From NCBI RefSeq assembly GCF_000264995.1, contig NW_006767446.1:160231-224230 (forward strand): 64,000 bases of DNA. The letters are read 5' to 3'. The notes under the pieces are model-generated. The model ran no database searches. It saw only the letters and a list, made by a program, of their open reading frames with translations, and was not told the origin of the DNA. Positions 42,391 to 59,398 of this stretch are shown here, piece by piece; the stretch's first letter is position 1; every line of letters starts with the position of its first letter. The position numbers were made by a program, and so were the translations under genes. This DNA is from Punctularia strigosozonata HHB-11173 SS5 (lineage: Eukaryota; Basidiomycota; Agaricomycetes; Corticiales; Punctulariaceae).

Positions 42391-43890
42391 TCGTGTTATG
42401 TACCGTATCACGTCAGTCAAAGGACCGTACTTCATGTTATTATCCTTACGGTTGCACTATCCGGATCCATTGTCATCCAACACGCTCTGGGCCATTGCCA
42501 TGTAATGCCTCTTGGACTACGGAGGCCGTTTCCCGCCAGGTCTCCAGTGAGCGCCACGCGCTGTCGCGCTGCTGGCCACTCACCGCAGCAACGGTATCCC
42601 CACAGGCCACGTCGCATATTTGTGTGGTGATGAGGCGCGTGCACCTGGGCGAGCACTTGACATGACCCAGAACACGTCCTCTTTAGGTCGTGCAAGAGAA
42701 GTTTGATCACATTGACACTGCCACCATGGTATGCCGCATGGAACTCTGGACTGATACATAGAATAAGAAGCAAATGTATTCAGTCAGTTCATAAATGTGA
42801 CCCGTCAGATTTGCGAATGCGCCGTGCGACGAAGTCCTCAAATGTGGCAAATGCCACATCTCTCCCTATAGCTGTCTCGTCGTCGTCGTCACTCCCCTAC
42901 CCACCCCACTGACGCACAGCATCCTCCGCTCGTCCTTGGACTTGGATACAGCACCTGTAATTGAAGACGATGCGAAGCGATGTTGAAGAACGCGCGGAGC
43001 TCACTATTGAGGACCGCGCGAAGCTTCCCGTCGACGACTTCGCGAAGCTCGCCTTCGAAGACCGCAAAGTCCGAAGCCGTATCGAAGAACGCGCGGGCTC
43101 ACCGTCGGAGGCCATGCGGAGCTCACCATCAAAGACCGCGTGAAGCTCCCTGTCGAAGACCACGCAAAGCTCCCCAGGGATCTCAGGAGAATCGGCGCGG
43201 TTGCGTTGGCTCAGTCTGTCTCAGCTACTGATTTATCGAATGCCAAAGCGATACCACTCGAAGCCCTTGCTTGTGATGACTGCGATACGCCACAGGAATC
43301 TGCGTACAGATGATATTGCAACCTCAGAGCTCCATGCGGGATTCGGGAGTCACGATGAAACGAGGGGCAGGAGTTCGGTGGTATGAGGGCTTATGATGGG
43401 TGTCACATTATCGACAGAGGTCTCCAATCACAGCGCAGCTTTCTGCTGTCACTCAAGTCCGGTGCACACGAGGTATGCACGATGTCCATTCTGCCTGCAA
43501 CGATACACCGCTAACTGAAGATGAAAGCGATGCTTCTGCGCCTGTCATGCCTATGATTAGCTTCGTGGATGGCAATGCACGCAGAATAACCCCACCGTGC
43601 TGCAGTCATGCGCCCTTCCCAGGCGATACACGTGCGAACAGCCATCATTCAACCCCAACGAGCCCCCTCGGCGCTAATCGCGATACAAGCTATTGACAAG
43701 ACGCCGTCGAGTCGCATCTCCTTCGCTCCACCGTCTCCTTCACCCGCGCTCATACCAAACTCCATGGGTGACAGTCCGGCATCTCACAGTACCGGGGCTG
43801 CAGTCCGGCATCTCACAGTACCGGGGCTTGCCCTCCAAACCGCCTAGCCTTCGCCCTCCACAAACCCCAGCAAAGAGGCTTGCGCATTCC
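42391..43890. repeat. KDZ interior with short tandem repeats
   Basis: At about 42965-43180 a loosely repeated 20-30 bp motif (gaagaccgcgcgaagctc and variants) encodes ERAELTIEDRAKLPVDDFAK-like text; it is probably low-complexity DNA. At 43776-43828 a 28-bp unit, cagtccggcatctcacagta plus ccggggct, occurs twice in perfect tandem. No gene is recognised. Confidence 0.6.
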
Positions 43891-43896
43891 CGCAGG

Positions 43897-44401
43897 ATGG
43901 CGCTCGTGGACGCGCAGACGCTCGCGATCCACAAGCTGCTCACGAAGGTGACGGTCGAGAGCGCGTTCTCGCTGGGCCCGCCGCTCCCGAAATTGCACCC
44001 ATCGCCGGTGCTTGTGGCAAAGCTGCACCTCGAGTGCGTAGAGACCTACGCCTCCGCGCACGAGCTTGCCAAGACGCCCGGCGCATCGCACAAGCCGAAA
44101 CATCCTTTTGGACTCGGGAAGTACGACGCGGACGATGACGGCGCCGTACGGGGCAAAGTCGCGAGCGAGCTGAGATGGTATTTGGCGGACGAACACGCGT
44201 TGCACGCAGTGCTGGCGCACAAGTGGCTCGGCGTCGACGCGGGCTCGGCGCCGGGCGGGGCGCGGGCGGGCGGGCGAGGCCATCACTTTTCTGGCATGGG
44301 CGAAGCGCGAGCTGGACGAGCTCGGCGGGCGCGGGGTGAGCGTCGGCGGTGGCTCGCGGGAGGATGACATGCGCAAAAGGCGGAGGCATGCACGAGGCTG
44401 A
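43897..44401 (+). pseudogene. captured BRO1-domain (PalC-like) gene fragment, frameshifted
   Basis: The open frame reads MALVDAQTLAIHKLLTKVTV, ESAFSLGPPLPKLHPSPVLV, AKLHLECVETYASAHELAKT, then ELRWYLADEHALHAVLAHKW and LGVDAG. In another frame it resumes GEAITFLAWAKRELDELGGR to TGA at 44399-44401. The KWLGVDAG then G.A..FL.WAK.EL order is the hallmark of the BRO1 domain of the fungal pH-response regulator PalC, a partner of the ESCRT machinery in alkaline signalling. The frame break lies at about 44255-44285. Its position inside the KDZ element and lack of the rest of the gene point to capture of a host gene piece. It is much richer in GC than the transposon genes around it. Confidence 0.6.
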
Positions 44402-45605
44402 GGGTCGAGAGCAGCTCCACCGCCGCCGGCAGCTGGTCATCGACGAAGACGATGACTTCATGATCCCTTACGCAACAATTTGCAGGGTCGTGTATATGAC
44501 TGTGGTACGCGAGCGGCGCAGTCTCTGGGTTATATTCACAAGACAACGGTTGTCGGAAAGGCGCACGAGCGCACTGGTAATAGTGCACAACGGCGGTCAC
44601 ACAAATTCAACGGCATCTTTCTCGATAATCTCCTGTATCATCTCTTGTTATAATATTGTTCTACAAGAGAAATATTAAGGAGAAATTTTGCGCTGCACAG
44701 GGTCCAGTATTTAGAGGGAAAGGATTAGCCGCGATGGCCACAGGATGCCGAAGATGGCCCAGTGTGACAACAATGGCGCGTGCTCCGGACCATTATTGTC
44801 CAACGCGCCCTGGGTCTTCATTGTCCAATGCGCCCCTGGCCACCGCGAGGCAATGCGACGCCGATGGGCCACTTGATGCTTTGGCTGGAACGCAGCCCTT
44901 GAGGCAATATTCCCACGACCCGTCCAGGCTGGACGAGCACATTAGAATGGTAACTGATGCGTGATCTGAGTGTGAGAACTGGGATATCTATTGATCGCCA
45001 AAGTTGAATTTCAAGCCGCTAGGAGGGGATTTTGTGACTTCAGAATGGCATAGCATACTGTATATATTGCTCAATTGTCCATGTGAATAATATCTAGTAA
45101 TAAGACACAAAGTAGACCAGCGTAGCCAATGTAGTGATCGTTCAACGAGTTACTGACCGTGGGACCGGGAGTGGCTGAGGGCCGGAACACCGGTTGGCAT
45201 GCCGCAGTGGCCCAGGACAACAAGCACGGCGATACAACATGGCCAGTGTCCGGCGGATTGTCCGGCGACTGTCCGCCGGACTGTCCGCCGAATTTTTTTC
45301 TAGTCGATGGGATGTCCTCAGTTGTTCTCATTGCAGAGCACCGCATCACCTGTTTTCTGCCTTTCACACAATTAGGCTCCCGTGCGTGGTCTCAACGTGG
45401 AAAGGTATCTTTGTCTTTGCATTGTGCATGCACAATCGTTCACGTCTTTGTCTTTCTTCACACCTCACTGCCGCAATAGGTATCATATGCTTTGTTCAAA
45501 CAATGCAACGAGTCGCGCCGGTGTATATCAGTCACGGTAAACATAGTTCTGTGATAAGTTCTGAGCCATCTGTACCTTCAGCTTTCTTGTCCCTGGTCCA
45601 CTACC
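44402..45605. other. KDZ interior, no gene seen
   Basis: 1.2 kb with short ORFs only. A cluster of gtccggcggattgtccggcg-type repeats lies at about 45246-45292. AT-rich stretches flank it. Confidence 0.4.
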
Positions 45606-46317
45606 ATGCCACCCAGCCCCTCCAAGCTTGCTCAGATAGCTGCACGAAAGGATTGCATGCAGCGTTACGTTGCGCTCGTCCAAGAGTTAGCTAGTCCGGC
45701 TGTGCATCCCTACCCAGCAAACGCCAGCCGCTGCTGGTTCCGCCAGCCGCTTCTGTCATATGGCTGGGGAGATCGCTTCGAGTCAGTGGGCAGGTACTGG
45801 ATCAAGGTATGTTTGAACTTGCCCGATCGTATATGTTGCTAAATCGCCTTTGCAGTGCCACAGGCCCGCTCATAGGCACCAGCCGTGTGGCATTCCCCAG
45901 TCCCTATCCATGCCACTTCATCCGGATGTAGAGGCCCGGTTATCCCATGCTGCCGCAGAGCTGGCGGCCCTTGGACACCCTATCAAGAAGCATTTCCCTC
46001 GTGTCCATCCGTTCTATCCCTCGTCAACCACGGGATCGTCCCCCAGCACAAAGCGCAAGCTATCTCCGGATTGTGACACATCGGAGCGACTTCGTCGTGT
46101 TCGCCCTCGCATTAATTCTCCTCCTGCAGTGAACCTCTTCGACGGTGAGCTAGTCTCTGAGGCGGATTCAGATGAAGTAGCAACAGTGACTGCGGTGAGC
46201 AAGCGGGGTGCCACCGAGCATGCGGAGAGGATAATAATTGATCTCACCGGACCGGATGTTATTGACCTCACAATTACGGACATCATTGATTTGACTGTAG
46301 ATTCCGATGAAGAGTAA
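45606..46317 (+). CDS. KDZ-element small protein with Cys/His segment and three SUMO-interaction-like motifs
   Basis: Two exons splice in frame across an intron at about 45808-45856. Exon 1 begins MPPSPSKLAQIAARKDCMQR and ends CWFRQPLLSYGWGDRFESVG with RYWIK. Exon 2 continues CHRPAHRHQPCGIPQ, so Cys and His residues in order C..C.H..H.H..C could bind a metal, in a layout a little like GRF zinc fingers. After a disordered Ser/Pro/Arg region the C-terminus holds IIIDLT, VIDLT and IIDLTVDSDEE within 30 residues. These fit the SUMO-interaction consensus: a hydrophobic core followed by acidic residues. The total is about 220 residues with stop TAA at 46315. It lies just upstream of the transposase gene on the same strand. 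A role in recruiting SUMOylated proteins to the element or its transposase is my inference. Confidence 0.55.
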
Positions 46318-46628
46318 TTACTGTACATATCATGATATATACTTAATCTGCATGGCTGTTAAGCACGGCTGGTGTCGGCAATTGGCAAACGAGCGCAAGC
46401 CTGAATCACCGCATCTTCAAGTTGATATCGGTTTCTTGTCTTGCATTGTCCACTCACAATTGTTTGCAATGCCGTCATCTTAGTGGACCACAATAAGAAT
46501 GGACTGTGGCAAGACACCACATGATGGTCTGGCCACATATTATTATCCACTCCGCTGGCCCCTCAAATCTCTCGTTCATCCTTTTCCGTTTGTATCGTGC
46601 CACGTCCCTCTCCTTTGCAAGCCCTACA
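46318..46628. promoter_or_regulatory. spacer upstream of the KDZ transposase gene
   Basis: 311 bp between the stop of the SIM protein gene and the ATG at 46629. It probably contains the transposase promoter. No distinct motif is seen. Confidence 0.35.
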
Positions 46629-49600
46629 ATGGTGAAACAGAAACGGGCGCAGCCAGACAACAGTCACCTTGCATCTCATATGGCCTTCGACGACTGCGAA
46701 TTCACATCCACCTTCGTGTTCACCGACAGCACTCCGGACGGTTACACCCAGCGTCGCACTGAATATCTTGATTTCCATCGGCCATCCGCCCCATCTGTGC
46801 TACTGCAAGCCCAATCCGGACTTCTCGAGCCCATTTCTGGACCAGAACTTCCGCATCCAGAGGAAATACCATCCCAGAAGCGGAAATATGTGCGCATGGG
46901 GTTCCTCATCTATGGCTCACTTACATATATTGAATCCAGGGCATATCAGTGACAATGAAGAAGTTTCAGGCGCATTCCACCGACTTGCTGCACCGTATTA
47001 TCAGTCACGAAGCCCCCGACTTCGAAGTCGACCCTCAGCCTTGCCCATGCGGGAGTGGCTCATTGATGGATACACGCTGCTCACACTGTGTTCAGTATAC
47101 GACCGCATGTACTACTTGCTTCCGTGAATCACACATTCACCAACCATTTCATTGGTCGGAAACATGGAACGGTCGCTTTTTCGAGCGTATCTACGATCCC
47201 AAAGCAAGACCAGCACTGCACCTCGGGCATGGTGGACGGAAATGTCCTGAAGCGGCGGAGGAACGACACATATCGTTTACCATTGCGGATACATCAGGAG
47301 TTCATCAAATGAGTGTCGTATTCTGTCGCTGTTTCAATCATGGGGACCGAGCTGAACAGCTCATGGACGCGAAGCTATTTCCAGCATCAATGGACCAACC
47401 GACCACGGCATTTACCTTCAGCCTGCTCCGCGACTTTCACATGCATAGTCTCACTTCTAAGAAGTCAGCCTACGACTTTGTTCTTGCTCTCCGGCGTCTG
47501 AGCAACAACGCATTTCCAGACTCGGTTCCGGTGAGTTCACTTGGACTACTGTTCGTTCCAACTGTTCAACTTCCCCGCAGGATATCTATCCGCAGTTTCT
47601 CTGCGTGATTCGCGTCTGGCGATACCTCATCATGCTCAAGCGCAGTGGTCAAATGCATGCAATAGACAATTGTCTTCCAGGTCGTCCGCCTGGCAGTGTC
47701 ATTGTCCCCTGCTTTGCATGTCCCGAAAGGGGTCTCAATACCACCGACGAGTTTGATCTCTCTGACAATGATTATCGGTACGCCCATGTAGTTTACGTAT
47801 AGCCTGGCATCTTACACGACTTAGACATCTTCGATCTCTTATACTGTCGGCCGACGGCCATTTTGGTCTGCAGCGCAAGAGCAAGAAGGATGACCCCGAC
47901 GATATCTCCTTAGTTGCTGGCCGCGCATTCTTCCCTGACGAGAGCACTTTCAAATCATACCTTGCTAAGATCAAATCAAGCGAAGAGGTGAGCTGATCCG
48001 AATCTTCTCTCGAGGTGCAGCTTAACAACTTGATTCTAGAAATCTACCTGCTCCAGGTTCAACGCGATTGAAATGCAGAACAAACTCAAGTTCAAGGGAA
48101 TGGTGACCAGCGGTGTAGTTGCCGTAACGTGTGCAAGACATGGCTTGTTCCGGCATGGAGGTCTGACAGACCTCGAACGAGGAGAGAAGTGGGCTCCTCA
48201 TATTGTCTCAGCCTAGCGATGACACAACTGACTGTTATTGTTTCAGATATGCCAATACCGACTATGCACTCGCTCAGGTCTTGAAGCACTATAAAGACTA
48301 TACCGACATCTTGTTGAGCTACGACATCGCATGCCAGTACATGGTGAACCTTGTTCAACGCTTTGAGGTACAATTTCCGGAGCTTGTCAAGACTGTTCGT
48401 GGAGTCGAAGGACGGATTCCAAGCATGCATGTTGATGGGCACCTTGAAAAGTGCACGTACCGCTTTGGTTTCTCATACAACGATGGTGGTGGCCGAACAG
48501 ATGCAGAAAGTATCGAGCGTGGCTGGTCTGAACAAAAACAGGCTGGCGGAAGCACACGGGAGATGAATGCCGGCCATCGTCATGACACGTTAACAGACTT
48601 TATGAACGATTACAATTTCACAAAGATACGGAAGCTGGGTAAGTGTTTTTGTTATATAGACTCTAGTGCGATCCTGAACCCTTGTTTCAGCATCATCAAT
48701 GCATACCCGGCTGTCAGAGGCACGCGAGGCTCTTGAGGAGCACCGTGTGTACTTTCTGCATCTTTGCCGTGAGGCCGGACAAAATTTAGTCGATCAGTGG
48801 TCTGCGATATCCACGAAACCGGAGCTTAGGAATGGAAAATGGTATAGCGTGTTTCAATTCAATGAACAGCTAGGTACGTACAAGCAAGCTGTAGATCATA
48901 TGCCCTTGTGGCTCATTTCGTGCATTAGTTCCTTCTCAGAAATCTGCTTTCGCCTCATTGGTTCAATCTGAGGCAGCTACTGCCGGAGCGCTGAAAGGCG
49001 CAGCCCCCCGAGCGTTATTCCTCTATACGGGTCTCAAGCTTGAAGAACAGCAGTAAGTGGTGATCTAAATACTTTTGGTGATCTCTTGACGCCTTCCATA
49101 GGTTGGCTCTCAGAAATAAGGTCTCGAAACTCTCATCCCAACCGACAGCAGCCGATCTGCTGAGTATAGACAAGGAACGGCAAAAATTGCGATATGGGAT
49201 CAAGCAATGGCGTAGCCAGCAGTGTTCGCTCATGCCTCTGATATTGCCGCTCATTGTTCAGTCACATTTCGCGGAGCCTGAGAATGAGGTGCTGTATCTT
49301 CCATCCGACATTGACGGCACGGACAAGCGAGAGGCGTATGGCCTTTCTCAGCTGGCTGACGAGGAGATGTCCCTGCACGTTGGAGAGGCACACGACTACC
49401 TTCAAAATGTCCGCCATGCCGTACGGTATTATTCCTGTGTCTATCGCCACAAAGTCAGGCATGCTCAGGGTATTGCGCAAAACACTCGAGCAGGTAAACT
49501 TGTCCAGTCTGCTAACGAGGCCAAGCTTGCATGGATAGCTAAGTACAATCATGCACGAGACCGCATGATCAAGCTTGGTCGCTCACCAAGTGATCCTCTC

Positions 49601-50304
49601 TTCCCCGCACTGAAGGAGGAGGACACATGGATGAAGGATGTAATTGTCCCTCATACCCTCGGAGATGGATCCAGGCAGCCTGGATGGATCTGGCGAATAG
49701 GCCCTCGAGGCAATCTCTCCGAAGGCGAACAATCAGCGTTCACTGCTGAAGGTCAATGATTTTCGTCTTCTTACAAGCAGGATCTAATGTTTGCCTTGGC
49801 AGTGGCACGTGTTGAATGGTATCGAGCTCGCGCACTCATGCATCGATGGTTGGAGGAGGTTGAAATACTGGAGCAAGAGTTTTGCCGTACCATCTGCGGG
49901 TTCAAACGGATGGTTCAATTTTGGGATGACCTCGCGAATGGCGAAGCATCTCCTGGCCCAAAGGCCTATGCATACCGCCAATCCGCTATGTATGCAAAAT
50001 TTGCAGCCGAGGCCCACGAGAAGTTCTTGAAATGCGGCGGAACTTGGCCAGCTGAAGGTGTATCAAGTTGGCAGCATGCGGCTTCTCGACGACCACCTCT
50101 GATGGTGAACTGGGATGCTGATGAGGCCGAGTTGTCGGGCTCCATCGAGCCCCCCCGGAACGAGTCACGAAAACGCGGTCGATCACGGTGAGTCGCAAAA
50201 CTATACGGCGAAGCTTGATTCAATAGCTGATGTTTAAACACTCTAAACACAGCAAAACCGCTGACGATGGAATAGAGCCACAGAAGCGGCCTCGACGACG
50301 CTAG
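46629..50304 (+). CDS. KDZ transposase with CxC2-like cysteine cluster
   Basis: Transposase of the Kyakuja-Dileera-Zisupton superfamily. From the ATG at 46629 a short exon ends KRKY and joins GISVTMKKFQAHSTDLLHRI. The cysteine cluster (CPCGSGSL, CSHC, CTTCFRESHIHQPFH) leads into ETWNGRFFERI, LHLGHGGRKCPE and the SGVHQMSVVFCRC block. Then AYDFVLALRRLSNN, DIYPQFLCVIRVWRYLIMLK, CFACPERGLN, ILSADGHFGLQRKSKKDDPD, the catalytic-core motif LLSYDIACQYM, IPSMHVDGHLEKC and GGGRTDAESIERGWSEQKQA follow, all typical of KDZ transposases. The tail is basic (SRKRGRSR, QKRPRRR, stop TAG 50302). About ten exons are needed; the junctions I checked keep frame and I found no disabling stop, so it appears intact at over 900 residues. 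Confidence 0.88.
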
Positions 50305-50535
50305 CTCAAACGGTTCGAACGAGGTTCGAACGACTGGGCGCTGTTTAAACGGACTACGTGCTCGCGTGCAGTGTTTGAACAGTATTTTACGAGTTCCGTT
50401 CGACATGTTTGAATATCGGTTTAATTGGGTATCGTTTAAACAATATATATTCTCGCGGAACGTACTACAGGGATTCGCAGAAGGAGGCTCGTTTAAACCT
50501 ATACGCCTATCGGCCTGGCAAATGTTTGAACAAAG
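50230..50535. repeat. right subterminal GTTTAAAC/GTTTGAAC cluster of the KDZ element
   Basis: Mirror of the left cluster, with GTTTAAAC at about 50231, 50343, 50434 and 50489 and GTTTGAAC variants between them. The first lies in the last transposase intron. Confidence 0.7.
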
Positions 50536-50873
50536 TTGGGGTGGTGTTAGGTTTCGCTACATTCTTCTTCGATTTACGTGTCACGGTTTGGACAGTGCAC
50601 TGTATCGTGTGTAGGGTCTCTCCACTTCAACGGGTTCCGTGTGCCAATTGTCGCTGCATGGTGCACTCAGCATGCTCTTGTTCTATATAAGCTTCACAGT
50701 CATATCTTAGAAACACCGGGGTTGACTATTATTGAACTCCTTATCATGAAAACCAGCTCATTATGGGCGTCAATCTATGAATCTAATACCAATGCCTCGC
50801 GGAATGGAACATACAAGAGCTTTCTTGGCACGCCTCGTGCAGTCCTCGAGGAGTCCTATTCCAGTAATATTTC

Positions 50874-53165
50874 ATGCCGTTGTGTTGTTCGAAGCTCACC
50901 ATGTGCATGTGCTTTGGAAGAAAACCGTTTACTTATCAATCCGAATCAACAGAGCCATGTCCTCAAAGTCTACTTGTTCACCTCACTCCCCAAGACCACC
51001 GTGTACGGGACACCAAGTGCATAGCTGGCATGCGTGAGCAGCGATTTGCAGCATCTCAAGATACAGTATTAATTTGTGCTACAGGATTCTCTCTCTTCTC
51101 AGCGTGTAAAGCATGGTTTAGTGCCAACACACCAAACAACGCCGAAGAATCTGGTGCTCAAGCTCCACTGAAGTACCATACTCGCTCCCATTGCTTTCTC
51201 ACCCTATGGCTAGCGTATATCATCACAATGATTGTGATACTGGAGCGGCTAGTTTCTACAGGAGCAAACAACATCTGGTATTTCGATAAAGAAACGGTGC
51301 AAGTGATGTTTGTCGTCTTCGCTCAAGGTCATCTACCGATAACGACGATGTATCTTTCACGTCTTGCAATATCTGCGTTACAAGATCCGCAGACCGCCCC
51401 TCGCACCTGGGTAGAGCTCTTCTGGCTTGCAGACCGAGATTGGCAGAATCCCTTCCCCTTTGCAGTTAGGACAATTACAATGGTGAAGAAACGCTTTCGC
51501 CCTTCCTCTACGTTCCTCGTCTTTTTCATTATCTCCTTCGTGGCTTTGATTACACCAGTTTCCTTCTCCCGTGCATGGTCTTCCCAGCTGCTTTCGAGAC
51601 TGGTATCAGGCACAACTTTCGCCAATTCCACCTCCCTGGCGTTACTCCCACAAGTCAGAGGCAGCTCGCAGCTGTCCAACGGATCCTTGATGTGGTTCAA
51701 TGGGTTGTGGACAGGAGACTACTATGACGCTGATGCAGGGCTGGATTTCTTCTCCGGCGGCTCCGAGCCGATCGTCAATCTGAATGTTACCTCCATGCCT
51801 GGTATCTTATTTACAGATCAAGGATGTGACGCTCAAAAAGGGAGTGGTGGATGGTCTGAAGAGGATCTTGAAAATATGTGCGATGATCTGAAGCCAGGCG
51901 CTACTATTCAGAAATCGGATCTAGCCTCTTCGAGCGGCGTCATAACTCTGCACATAGCTTGGTGCAGCAGCTTCTATGCCAACTCCACCTATAATACCGC
52001 GTGGATGCAAGAGGCAAATCAGTCAGATGTAACAGCTTTTCTCGGAATCAAGGTTTCCTTCACAGGTTCAAGCTCTGCTTCGATTCCGGACGGTATCATC
52101 TACTGCGACACCTCGTTTCAGACAGGTACCTCGGATATTATAATTGTGGACGACGACTCGGAGTGGCCAAGCTTCATGAACTTCCAACCGCATGCAGTTC
52201 CTAACATCACGGTTTCTCAATCACGCCATGCCGATGTGTCGTATCACCCACTCTATGCCGTGTTGTACTACATGACATTGCAGTCGAACAACCCAGGGCC
52301 CACCGTGGATAGCATCCTGGAAGCTCTGGGCTTTGACACGAATGCCGATAAGCCACCCACTATATCAGAGTTCGCGCTAAATCTTGGTTGGGGTGCAGCC
52401 TTCATGGCCAATAGTCTCTCTTCTCTCGCCCAAGAATCCACGAATCTCACCTATACGCGACTCGAGTATCTGGGTGAGGTGACATGGAAAAAGAATACCC
52501 CATACACTACACTGACGTCGACATTCCTGTGCATGTGGTTTGTCTTGATTGTCTACAGCACGTTCCGCATGCACAAACCGACGTTTAGCGATAATCTGAA
52601 TAGTTACACCGCCGCACGGCTTCTTGCCGACAAGCCGGAACTTGTCAAAGGATATTGCTGTGGAGGACTCGCGAACAATCCTCTCCTCTTCCAAAAATTC
52701 GGCCAAGTCGTCGACGTAGTGACGGCCGACTCGACACCTAACATCGGGCACGTAGGTGTGGAGAAGAGCGAGTCCACGGTGCAACCGCTTAGTCGTGGCC
52801 GTCTATATGGATGCGCAAATTGCCCACTGGCCCCCGCTTCCGTTGTCGATTCCACATCGCGCAACGATAACAACACGACCCGTGATAACTCCAACATGAC
52901 GGAGTCAGGTATCCTCATGATTACCTGGCCGGGTGGTTTGCGCAACAACGACCTTCAGACCATATCCTCCATCGTCCTTGGTCACGTGCCGGGTTTTGAC
53001 CACGGGCGAACCCTGGCAGTAGCGGTCAACGATAAAGTCCGTCTTACCATGCCAACTGTAGAGCACGCTCGTCAGTTTGTCGACGAGTGGCTCAATAAGC
53101 CGCGTCCCTTGGGTCTGGAGGACGTCGCTGTCGAGTGCCTGAACATCTCCGAGGCGTTGGCATAG
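50874..53165 (+). CDS. multi-span glycosylated membrane protein, paralogue B
   Basis: Uninterrupted ORF of up to 763 residues; an inner ATG at 51031 (MREQRFAASQDTVLICATGF) is an equally plausible start, since the N-terminal 50 residues have no counterpart in copy A. Hydrophobic spans are HCFLTLWLAYIITMIVILER, VMFVVFAQGHLPITTMYL, FLVFFIISFVALITPVSF and, near residue 560, LTSTFLCMWFVLIVYSTF. The domain between spans three and four has many NxS/T sites and paired Cys, so it probably faces outside. The tail shares LNSYTAARLLADKPELVKGY with copy A and continues about 170 residues further, including GILMITWPGGLRNNDLQT and a final globular-looking stretch. The family is unnamed to me. It begins about 280 bp beyond the KDZ right end. 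Confidence 0.65.
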   Translation: MPLCCSKLTMCMCFGRKPFTYQSESTEPCPQSLLVHLTPQDHRVRDTKCIAGMREQRFAASQDTVLICATGFSLFSACKAWFSANTPNNAEESGAQAPLKYHTRSHCFLTLWLAYIITMIVILERLVSTGANNIWYFDKETVQVMFVVFAQGHLPITTMYLSRLAISALQDPQTAPRTWVELFWLADRDWQNPFPFAVRTITMVKKRFRPSSTFLVFFIISFVALITPVSFSRAWSSQLLSRLVSGTTFANSTSLALLPQVRGSSQLSNGSLMWFNGLWTGDYYDADAGLDFFSGGSEPIVNLNVTSMPGILFTDQGCDAQKGSGGWSEEDLENMCDDLKPGATIQKSDLASSSGVITLHIAWCSSFYANSTYNTAWMQEANQSDVTAFLGIKVSFTGSSSASIPDGIIYCDTSFQTGTSDIIIVDDDSEWPSFMNFQPHAVPNITVSQSRHADVSYHPLYAVLYYMTLQSNNPGPTVDSILEALGFDTNADKPPTISEFALNLGWGAAFMANSLSSLAQESTNLTYTRLEYLGEVTWKKNTPYTTLTSTFLCMWFVLIVYSTFRMHKPTFSDNLNSYTAARLLADKPELVKGYCCGGLANNPLLFQKFGQVVDVVTADSTPNIGHVGVEKSESTVQPLSRGRLYGCANCPLAPASVVDSTSRNDNNTTRDNSNMTESGILMITWPGGLRNNDLQTISSIVLGHVPGFDHGRTLAVAVNDKVRLTMPTVEHARQFVDEWLNKPRPLGLEDVAVECLNISEALA

Positions 53166-58689: not shown

Positions 58690-59398
58690 CCTCGTGCGAC
58701 CGCTAAGAAGTCATAGTCCACCATGAGAAAGATATTGGGTATATGCAATAACGGCCTCACGTCACACGCAGATATATGCATAGATAATGGAGTTTCTGCA
58801 AGACGTGAGGGCAGCTGTGTCCCTTCAAGAACTTCCTATCGAGCACCGTGGCCAACATGATACGTGTCGTAGAACATCGAACATCCTGCACTCACCAGAT
58901 CACATACGCACTCAGCACCTCTTCGATCGCAACCAGTTCGTCACCACATTGTTCCAGATACGTCGCAGTTTCCGCCTGACCAAGCATAAGAGTCGTCGAT
59001 TCCCGTCTCTTTCAGATGCGCGCGGTGACGGCAGCAAACAGTGGAAGCTATGTCGTGGGCCGGGAGAGCATGTTACATACAATGCAGCGTCATATTCAGG
59101 GCTGCGTATAGGAGGGAAGCCACACCTTACGAGTGCATAGTCTCGTGATTCACACACTACACACTGACAGTGACACCATAGCCCCTGGCATTGGGAGATC
59201 CAAACTGAGTTGGAGCGAAAGAGGGTGTAGTGGATGGGTATATACATGTAACGGATTAAATGTCTGGTCCAGAGACGTAGATGTAAAGATACATGCGTGA
59301 ATCCGAGTCGTTGCTCAGACGAAACTTTTGTCCGTAAAGAGCGACGATGAAAAGGAGAGGGGTACTAAGCTGCGCGCAGAAATCCAAAGAAACGGTCC
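58690..59398. other. intergenic region, no gene seen
   Basis: About 700 bp with short ORFs only. Confidence 0.4.

What the first reader, a model, noticed from the sequence alone, without database searches (positions are those of the whole stretch)
45606..46317. KDZ-element protein with a Cys/His module and three tandem SUMO-interaction-like motifs
IIIDLT, VIDLT and IIDLTVDSDEE within 30 residues at the extreme C-terminus are close to textbook SIMs, in the style of SUMO-targeted ligases and PML partners. A transposon-borne multi-SIM protein beside its transposase suggests the element uses or evades host SUMO control of chromatin. I know of no description of this for KDZ elements.
Basis: partly seen in the sequence, partly recalled or inferred. 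Interest (0 to 1): 0.75.

Follow-up and report, generated by a model that had tools for sequence, protein, structure and literature searches.

The report
Orphan SUMO-motif gene beside KDZ transposase
A wood-rotting fungus carries, right next to an intact-looking transposon gene, a small protein of no known family whose tail has three copies of a motif that usually binds the cell's SUMO tag; whether the transposon really owns and uses it is not yet shown.

Summary
Window 45606-46317 is a two-exon gene (220 aa, deposited as PUNSTDRAFT_137808 of Punctularia strigosozonata). Its last 28 residues hold three [IV]IDLT motifs in an 8-residue repeat and an acidic end. Shuffles, the genome-wide pattern count (100 of 123 matches listed) and codons (motif kept, DNA diverged mostly silently) speak against chance. 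At sequence level this is a good tandem SUMO-interaction array, and the host has a SUMO-like gene. The Cys/His part matches no known domain and did not fold with confidence.

The gene lies 311 bp upstream, same strand, of a divergent CxC2-KDZ transposase gene that splices to a long open frame. Of 18 other strong CxC2-KDZ loci in the genome, 14 were examined further upstream: none has such an array; 10 carry an upstream same-strand gene with an RNase H1-N/viroplasmin-like motif, but farther away (about 1.3-2.6 kb). No homologue, second copy or transposon ends were found. So membership of the element is circumstantial, and conservation among KDZ elements could not be shown.

Best reading: an element-linked nuclear accessory protein that reads host SUMO. 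A host orphan gene beside a transposase is nearly as likely.

The parts
45606..45806 (+). exon 1 of the orphan gene (residues 1-67)
   Evidence: identical to P0001; its frame scores best of six in a rough codon score
45807..45855 (+). 49-nt intron, GTATGT...TTTGCAG
45856..46317 (+). exon 2 (residues 68-220 and stop)
   Evidence: best-scoring frame of six
45856..45888 (+). Cys/His patch C68-H69-x3-H73-x-H75-x2-C78, possible metal site, no known domain
   Evidence: positions; no Pfam family over its cut-off
46051..46104 (+). bipartite NLS-like basic stretch, residues 133-150
   Evidence: pattern only
46231..46314 (+). three [IV]IDLT motifs (24-nt units from 46234, 46258, 46282) plus acidic DSDEE end: SUMO-interaction-like array
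46629..50191 (+). KDZ transposase gene with CxC2 domain; start taken at the first ATG of the frame; eight GT..AG introns, chosen as the best of 16 combinations, give 905 aa without a stop up to 49756; the open frame 49760-50191 is a likely last exon
   Evidence: domains; intron candidates; splice test

Best explanation
A nuclear accessory protein linked to a divergent CxC2-KDZ transposon. Its C-terminal tail binds host SUMO or SUMO chains through three tandem SIMs (the acidic DSDEE end, perhaps phosphorylated, strengthening the last one), while the N-terminal part binds DNA, the transposase or another partner. By this bridge the element would be brought to, or shielded from, SUMO-marked chromatin or repair factors. 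Shown: the open gene structure, the array, signs of protein-level constraint on the motif, the neighbouring transposase gene, a SUMO-like host gene. Inferred: SUMO binding, nuclear location, ownership by the element, and the effect on transposition.
For: Array and non-chance tests. In the three motif cores 8 nucleotide changes suffice and 7 are synonymous (counted by hand from the units, the Leu change taken through CTG); P about 3.3e-4 for random changes from an ancestral core that I assumed. Spacer codons changed at all three positions. Host SUMO-like gene at C10:1384934-1385190 (recognised by eye). Same-strand KDZ gene 311 bp downstream with an open 905-aa splice product. Upstream same-strand companion genes are frequent at this genome's CxC2-KDZ loci: 10 of 14 flanks examined hold an RNase H1-N-like motif in sense, 0 of 14 in antisense.
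Against: No established element ends. No second copy found in the genome. None of the 14 flanks examined has the array or a credible match to the protein (best E 0.057 over all loci compared). The companions at other loci are a different protein and lie about 1.3-2.6 kb from the transposase start (read by eye) against 0.3 kb here, so the slot is not strictly the same. No homologue among 5.8 billion proteins by shared words. No binding data, no transcript data.
Confidence: 0.4

Rival explanations
1. A host orphan (lineage-specific) nuclear gene with a SIM array that happens to lie beside a KDZ insertion; it serves host SUMO biology such as chromatin or repair and has nothing to do with transposition.
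For: One copy found; no homologue or array in the 14 upstream KDZ flanks examined; no established boundary enclosing it with the KDZ gene.
Against: 311-bp gap on the same strand and frequent, though farther, companions at other KDZ loci. On the left lies another repeat that appears to end at 44781, not an obvious host gene.
Confidence: 0.35
2. The [IV]IDLT array is a linear motif for something other than SUMO (for example an acidic activation or adaptor-binding tail).
For: No binding test was possible; the tail matches no solved SIM peptide by sequence (one match, E 1.2, a sliding clamp).
Against: A parallel-SIM pattern recalled from ELM matches only at the three DLT sites in this protein. The form is that of RNF4-type SIMs (recalled).
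Confidence: 0.15
3. The gene model is spurious and the repeats are a DNA-level accident in transposon debris.
For: The deposited protein may be a prediction only; no transcript data seen; orphan.
Against: Synonymous divergence between the repeat cores, a canonical intron, and the annotated frame scoring best of six in both exons (rough, trained on seven long frames of the window, some of which may be antisense).
Confidence: 0.1

Closest known systems
Multi-SIM proteins such as RNF4 and other SUMO-targeted ligases (recalled)
   Same: Several [IV][IV]DLT-type motifs closely spaced in a short acidic stretch
   Different: No RING or other ligase domain found by Pfam; N-terminal part is an orphan sequence
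Fungal KDZ transposons with TET/JBP companion genes (PMC12730594, passages read; Iyer et al. 2014 recalled, not held)
   Same: A companion gene next to a KDZ transposase
   Different: Here the neighbour matches no TET/JBP family in Pfam and bears a SIM array; element ends unknown. The word SUMO does not occur in the main text of PMC12730594
CxC2-KDZ loci of the same genome with RNase H1-N/viroplasmin-like companions
   Same: A gene upstream of a CxC2-KDZ transposase on the same strand
   Different: Unrelated companion protein, farther upstream; KDZ exon 28-39% identical to this one over the aligned stretches

Membership tests
SUMO-interaction motif (SIM) proteins | Short hydrophobic V/I-rich core with adjacent acidic residues | tested here: met
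   Three sites within 193-214 plus VDSDEE; pattern recalled from ELM
SUMO-interaction motif (SIM) proteins | Binds SUMO | not testable with these tools
   Needs pull-down or NMR
SUMO-targeted ubiquitin ligase | RING domain | tested here: not met
   Only a sub-threshold IF-2B match, E 0.049, at E up to 1
GRF zinc finger | Zn_ribbon_GRF profile match | tested here: not met
   No match for residues 35-107 at E up to 10; the three genome matches lie elsewhere
KDZ transposon (the neighbouring gene) | KDZ catalytic domain with CxC cluster | tested here: met
   KDZ E 1.1e-30, CxC2 E 5.1e-31; catalytic residues not checked
KDZ transposon (whole element including the orphan gene) | Ends with TIRs, or CA..TG, and a short target-site duplication enclosing both genes | tested here: inconclusive
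   No long TIR within 38000-60000. Left 44700-45599 against right 50150-51199: no 7-9 bp repeat with CA..TG or 10 of 15 matching terminal bases; two 6-bp ones, of which 45431-50903 (CA..TG) encloses both genes but is about as frequent as chance gives

The most novel reading that the evidence does not exclude
CxC2-KDZ elements carry variable accessory genes upstream of the transposase. Many here have an RNase H1-N-like protein, whereas this lineage has recruited a SUMO-chain-reading adaptor that tethers the element to, or hides it from, SUMO-controlled chromatin: a transposon-encoded SUMO reader.
Probability: 0.22. Interest if true: 0.75.

Novelty: new variant of a known kind. Interest (0 to 1): 0.4.

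Why it matters
SUMO marks silenced chromatin and repair intermediates (recalled). A transposon-encoded protein that reads it would be a direct handle on how elements deal with host control, parallel to the TET/JBP enzymes of other fungal elements. In the held library I saw no paper linking KDZ elements and SUMO: one search returned none; (SUMO-interacting motif + transposase) listed all 12 papers, none on this by title and start of abstract; two searches listed 20 of 1,579 and 15 of 80, none on this; SUMO has 0 occurrences in the main texts of PMC12730594 and PMC12810828.

Tried and rejected
GRF-like zinc finger: the spacing C43...GRYW..C68 suggested it to me, but the profile does not match. 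Structure prediction from one sequence was too poor for a fold search, so none was run. Searches by N-terminal and C-terminal region found only the protein itself (2 candidates, 23 candidates). Viral contigs gave no relative. Solved structures gave one match each at E 2 and 1.2, dismissed as chance. Element ends: 19 pairs of 8-bp and 4 of 9-bp direct repeats were listed, all without CA..TG or matching termini; one 6-bp pair with CA..TG (45431-50903) would enclose both genes, but about one such pair is expected by chance (my arithmetic on the ranges), and an 8-bp repeat at nearly the same place lacks the TG end; the other 6-bp pair (45570-50952) has 10 of 15 matching terminal bases. No long TIR. 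The left repeat was examined as an empty-site marker, but its missing right end was not found right of the KDZ gene. The Pfam IF-2B match (E 0.049, below cut-off) was dismissed as chance.

Companions at other KDZ loci: the 10 of 14 count rests on a pattern I made from those very sequences; a first, tighter form gave 8 of 14. Pfam support is thin: Cauli_VI matched 4 of 7 upstream frames given, all four below cut-off; of 20 Cauli_VI matches in the genome 5 lie in these flanks, 2 of them over the cut-off, while the family also matched in 3 of 14 control genomes.

Full report
What is there. The window is contig C14 160231-224230 of a 33.6-Mb genome, identified as Punctularia strigosozonata HHB-11173 SS5 through its deposited protein. 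The gene has two exons, 45606-45806 and 45856-46317, split by a 49-nt canonical intron. The 220-aa product equals PUNSTDRAFT_137808. The C-terminus reads IIIDLT-GPD-VIDLT-ITD-IIDLT-VDSDEE. There are five Cys and ten His, with a patch C68-H69-x3-H73-x-H75-x2-C78, and a bipartite basic stretch at 133-150.

Is it more than chance? Of 200000 shuffles of the protein 161 had one or more motifs and none had two. The DNA pattern RTHRTHGAYYTNACN, which covers [IV][IV]D[LF]T apart from Val codon GTG, has 123 matches in the genome against 51 for the reversed control. Of the 100 listed, the only same-strand pair within 100 nt is in this gene; 23 matches, including this gene's third, are not listed. In 2461 stop-to-stop ORFs (60 aa or more, window plus loci then held, six loci over the target or its transposase left out) a strict SIM triple within 35 aa occurred once, here. 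A looser SIM pattern gave two, the other in a 171-aa frame starting near 59301. Most of these ORFs are not genes, so this is a background, not a proteome count.

The three units are 24 nt each and differ pairwise at 9, 11 and 13 sites; the cores differ nearly only at silent sites and the spacers at all codon positions. Counting by hand, 8 changes explain the cores and 7 are synonymous; random changes from an assumed ancestor would do so with P about 3.3e-4. This argues for translation and selection on the motif. The annotated frame has the best codon score of six in each exon, by a rough score.

Relatives. Three protein searches (whole, residues 30-95, residues 179-220) returned only the protein itself out of 938, 2 and 23 candidates at E up to 10. 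They need shared exact 5-residue words, so remote relatives can be missed. In the own genome one copy was found.

Neighbourhood. 311 bp downstream begins a transposase gene (first ATG of the frame, 46629) with CxC2 (E 5.1e-31) and KDZ (E 1.1e-30) domains. Eight GT..AG introns, the best of 16 combinations tried, give 905 aa without a stop, and a further open frame follows to 50191. So the gene looks intact; its catalytic residues and activity were not checked. The genome has 48 KDZ matches and 23 CxC2 matches, of which 19 are strong (E 4.3e-30 or better), this one the weakest of the 19. Its KDZ exon is 28-39% identical to those of the 18 others over the aligned stretches, so it is a divergent lineage. 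On the right a 765-aa open frame runs from 50868 to 53165.

None of the 14 flanks has [VI][VI]DLT in any frame, nor a credible match to the orphan protein. In the KDZ loci with 1.5-kb flanks (L002-L031, window locus included) one isolated VVDLT was seen, in L017, in a six-residue frame between two stops. The nine loci of another KDZ type fetched at about 10 kb (L034-L042) have none either.

Ten of the 14 flanks have, in sense and none in antisense, a W/F/Y-Y/I-x-V/I-x2-G-x2-VG motif that Pfam partly recognises as RNase H1 N-terminal/viroplasmin (4 of 7 frames, below cut-off; 5 of the 20 genome matches, 2 over cut-off). These motifs lie about 1.3-2.6 kb upstream of the likely transposase start (read by eye), not 0.3 kb. 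So upstream companions are frequent, but this one is neither the usual protein nor at the usual distance.

Element limits. On the left, 42515-44781 appears to belong to another, right-truncated repeat with copies on C1, C3 and C12. No long TIR or convincing target-site duplication encloses the orphan gene and the KDZ gene. The one candidate with CA..TG ends, 45431-50903 with a 6-bp repeat, is what chance would give about once in the ranges searched. In Cryptococcus, KDZ elements have 139-241 bp TIRs and 4-8 bp target-site duplications (PMC12810828, passages read), and two Kyakuja families of Laccaria have CA..TG ends without TIRs and 7-bp duplications (PMC12730594, passages read). With a single divergent copy the ends cannot be set by comparison.

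Mechanism. The most economical reading is a nuclear adaptor with a SUMO-binding tail. The host has a SUMO-like gene (recognised by eye). That SUMO can matter for a DNA transposon may have precedent: a paper on HMGXB4, a host factor of Sleeping Beauty, was listed for transposase, SUMO and SUMOylation (PMC10138897; search listing and the start of its abstract only). On KDZ and SUMO, one search returned no paper; one search listed 12 of 12, 20 of 1,579 and 15 of 80, none on it as far as titles and abstract starts tell. One search (companion genes of KDZ elements; 643 papers, 12 listed) showed none either. Iyer et al. 2014 is not held.

Verdict. SUMO binding is the best sequence-level reading.

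Noticed in passing
L043, L046-L050, L052, L053, L055, L056 (upstream flanks of other KDZ loci): 10 of 14 CxC2-KDZ flanks carry an upstream same-strand frame with an RNase H1-N/viroplasmin-like motif: a recurrent KDZ companion; one search listed no paper on it (12 of 643 shown).
   Followed up: partly
window 42515-44781: Apparently right-truncated repeat whose left end (42515-42543) matches, inverted, the right end of related copies on C1, C3 and C12; the C3 copy holds a 0.7-kb insertion bounded by 26-bp inverted repeats.
   Followed up: partly
window 45248-45281: Inverted repeat of 15-nt arms built from CCGGCGGA-like units, about 325 bp upstream of the orphan gene; could be a binding site or terminus.
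   Followed up: no
G000:C6:2020033-2025873: Cluster of six Cauli_VI (RNase H1-N) matches, five of them strong, not near the one KDZ match listed on C6.
   Followed up: no
L047/L020 (C13) and L048/L021 (C2): Two KDZ loci 93.7% and 97.3% identical over stretches of 3.5 and 3.0 kb, a likely recent pair.
   Followed up: no
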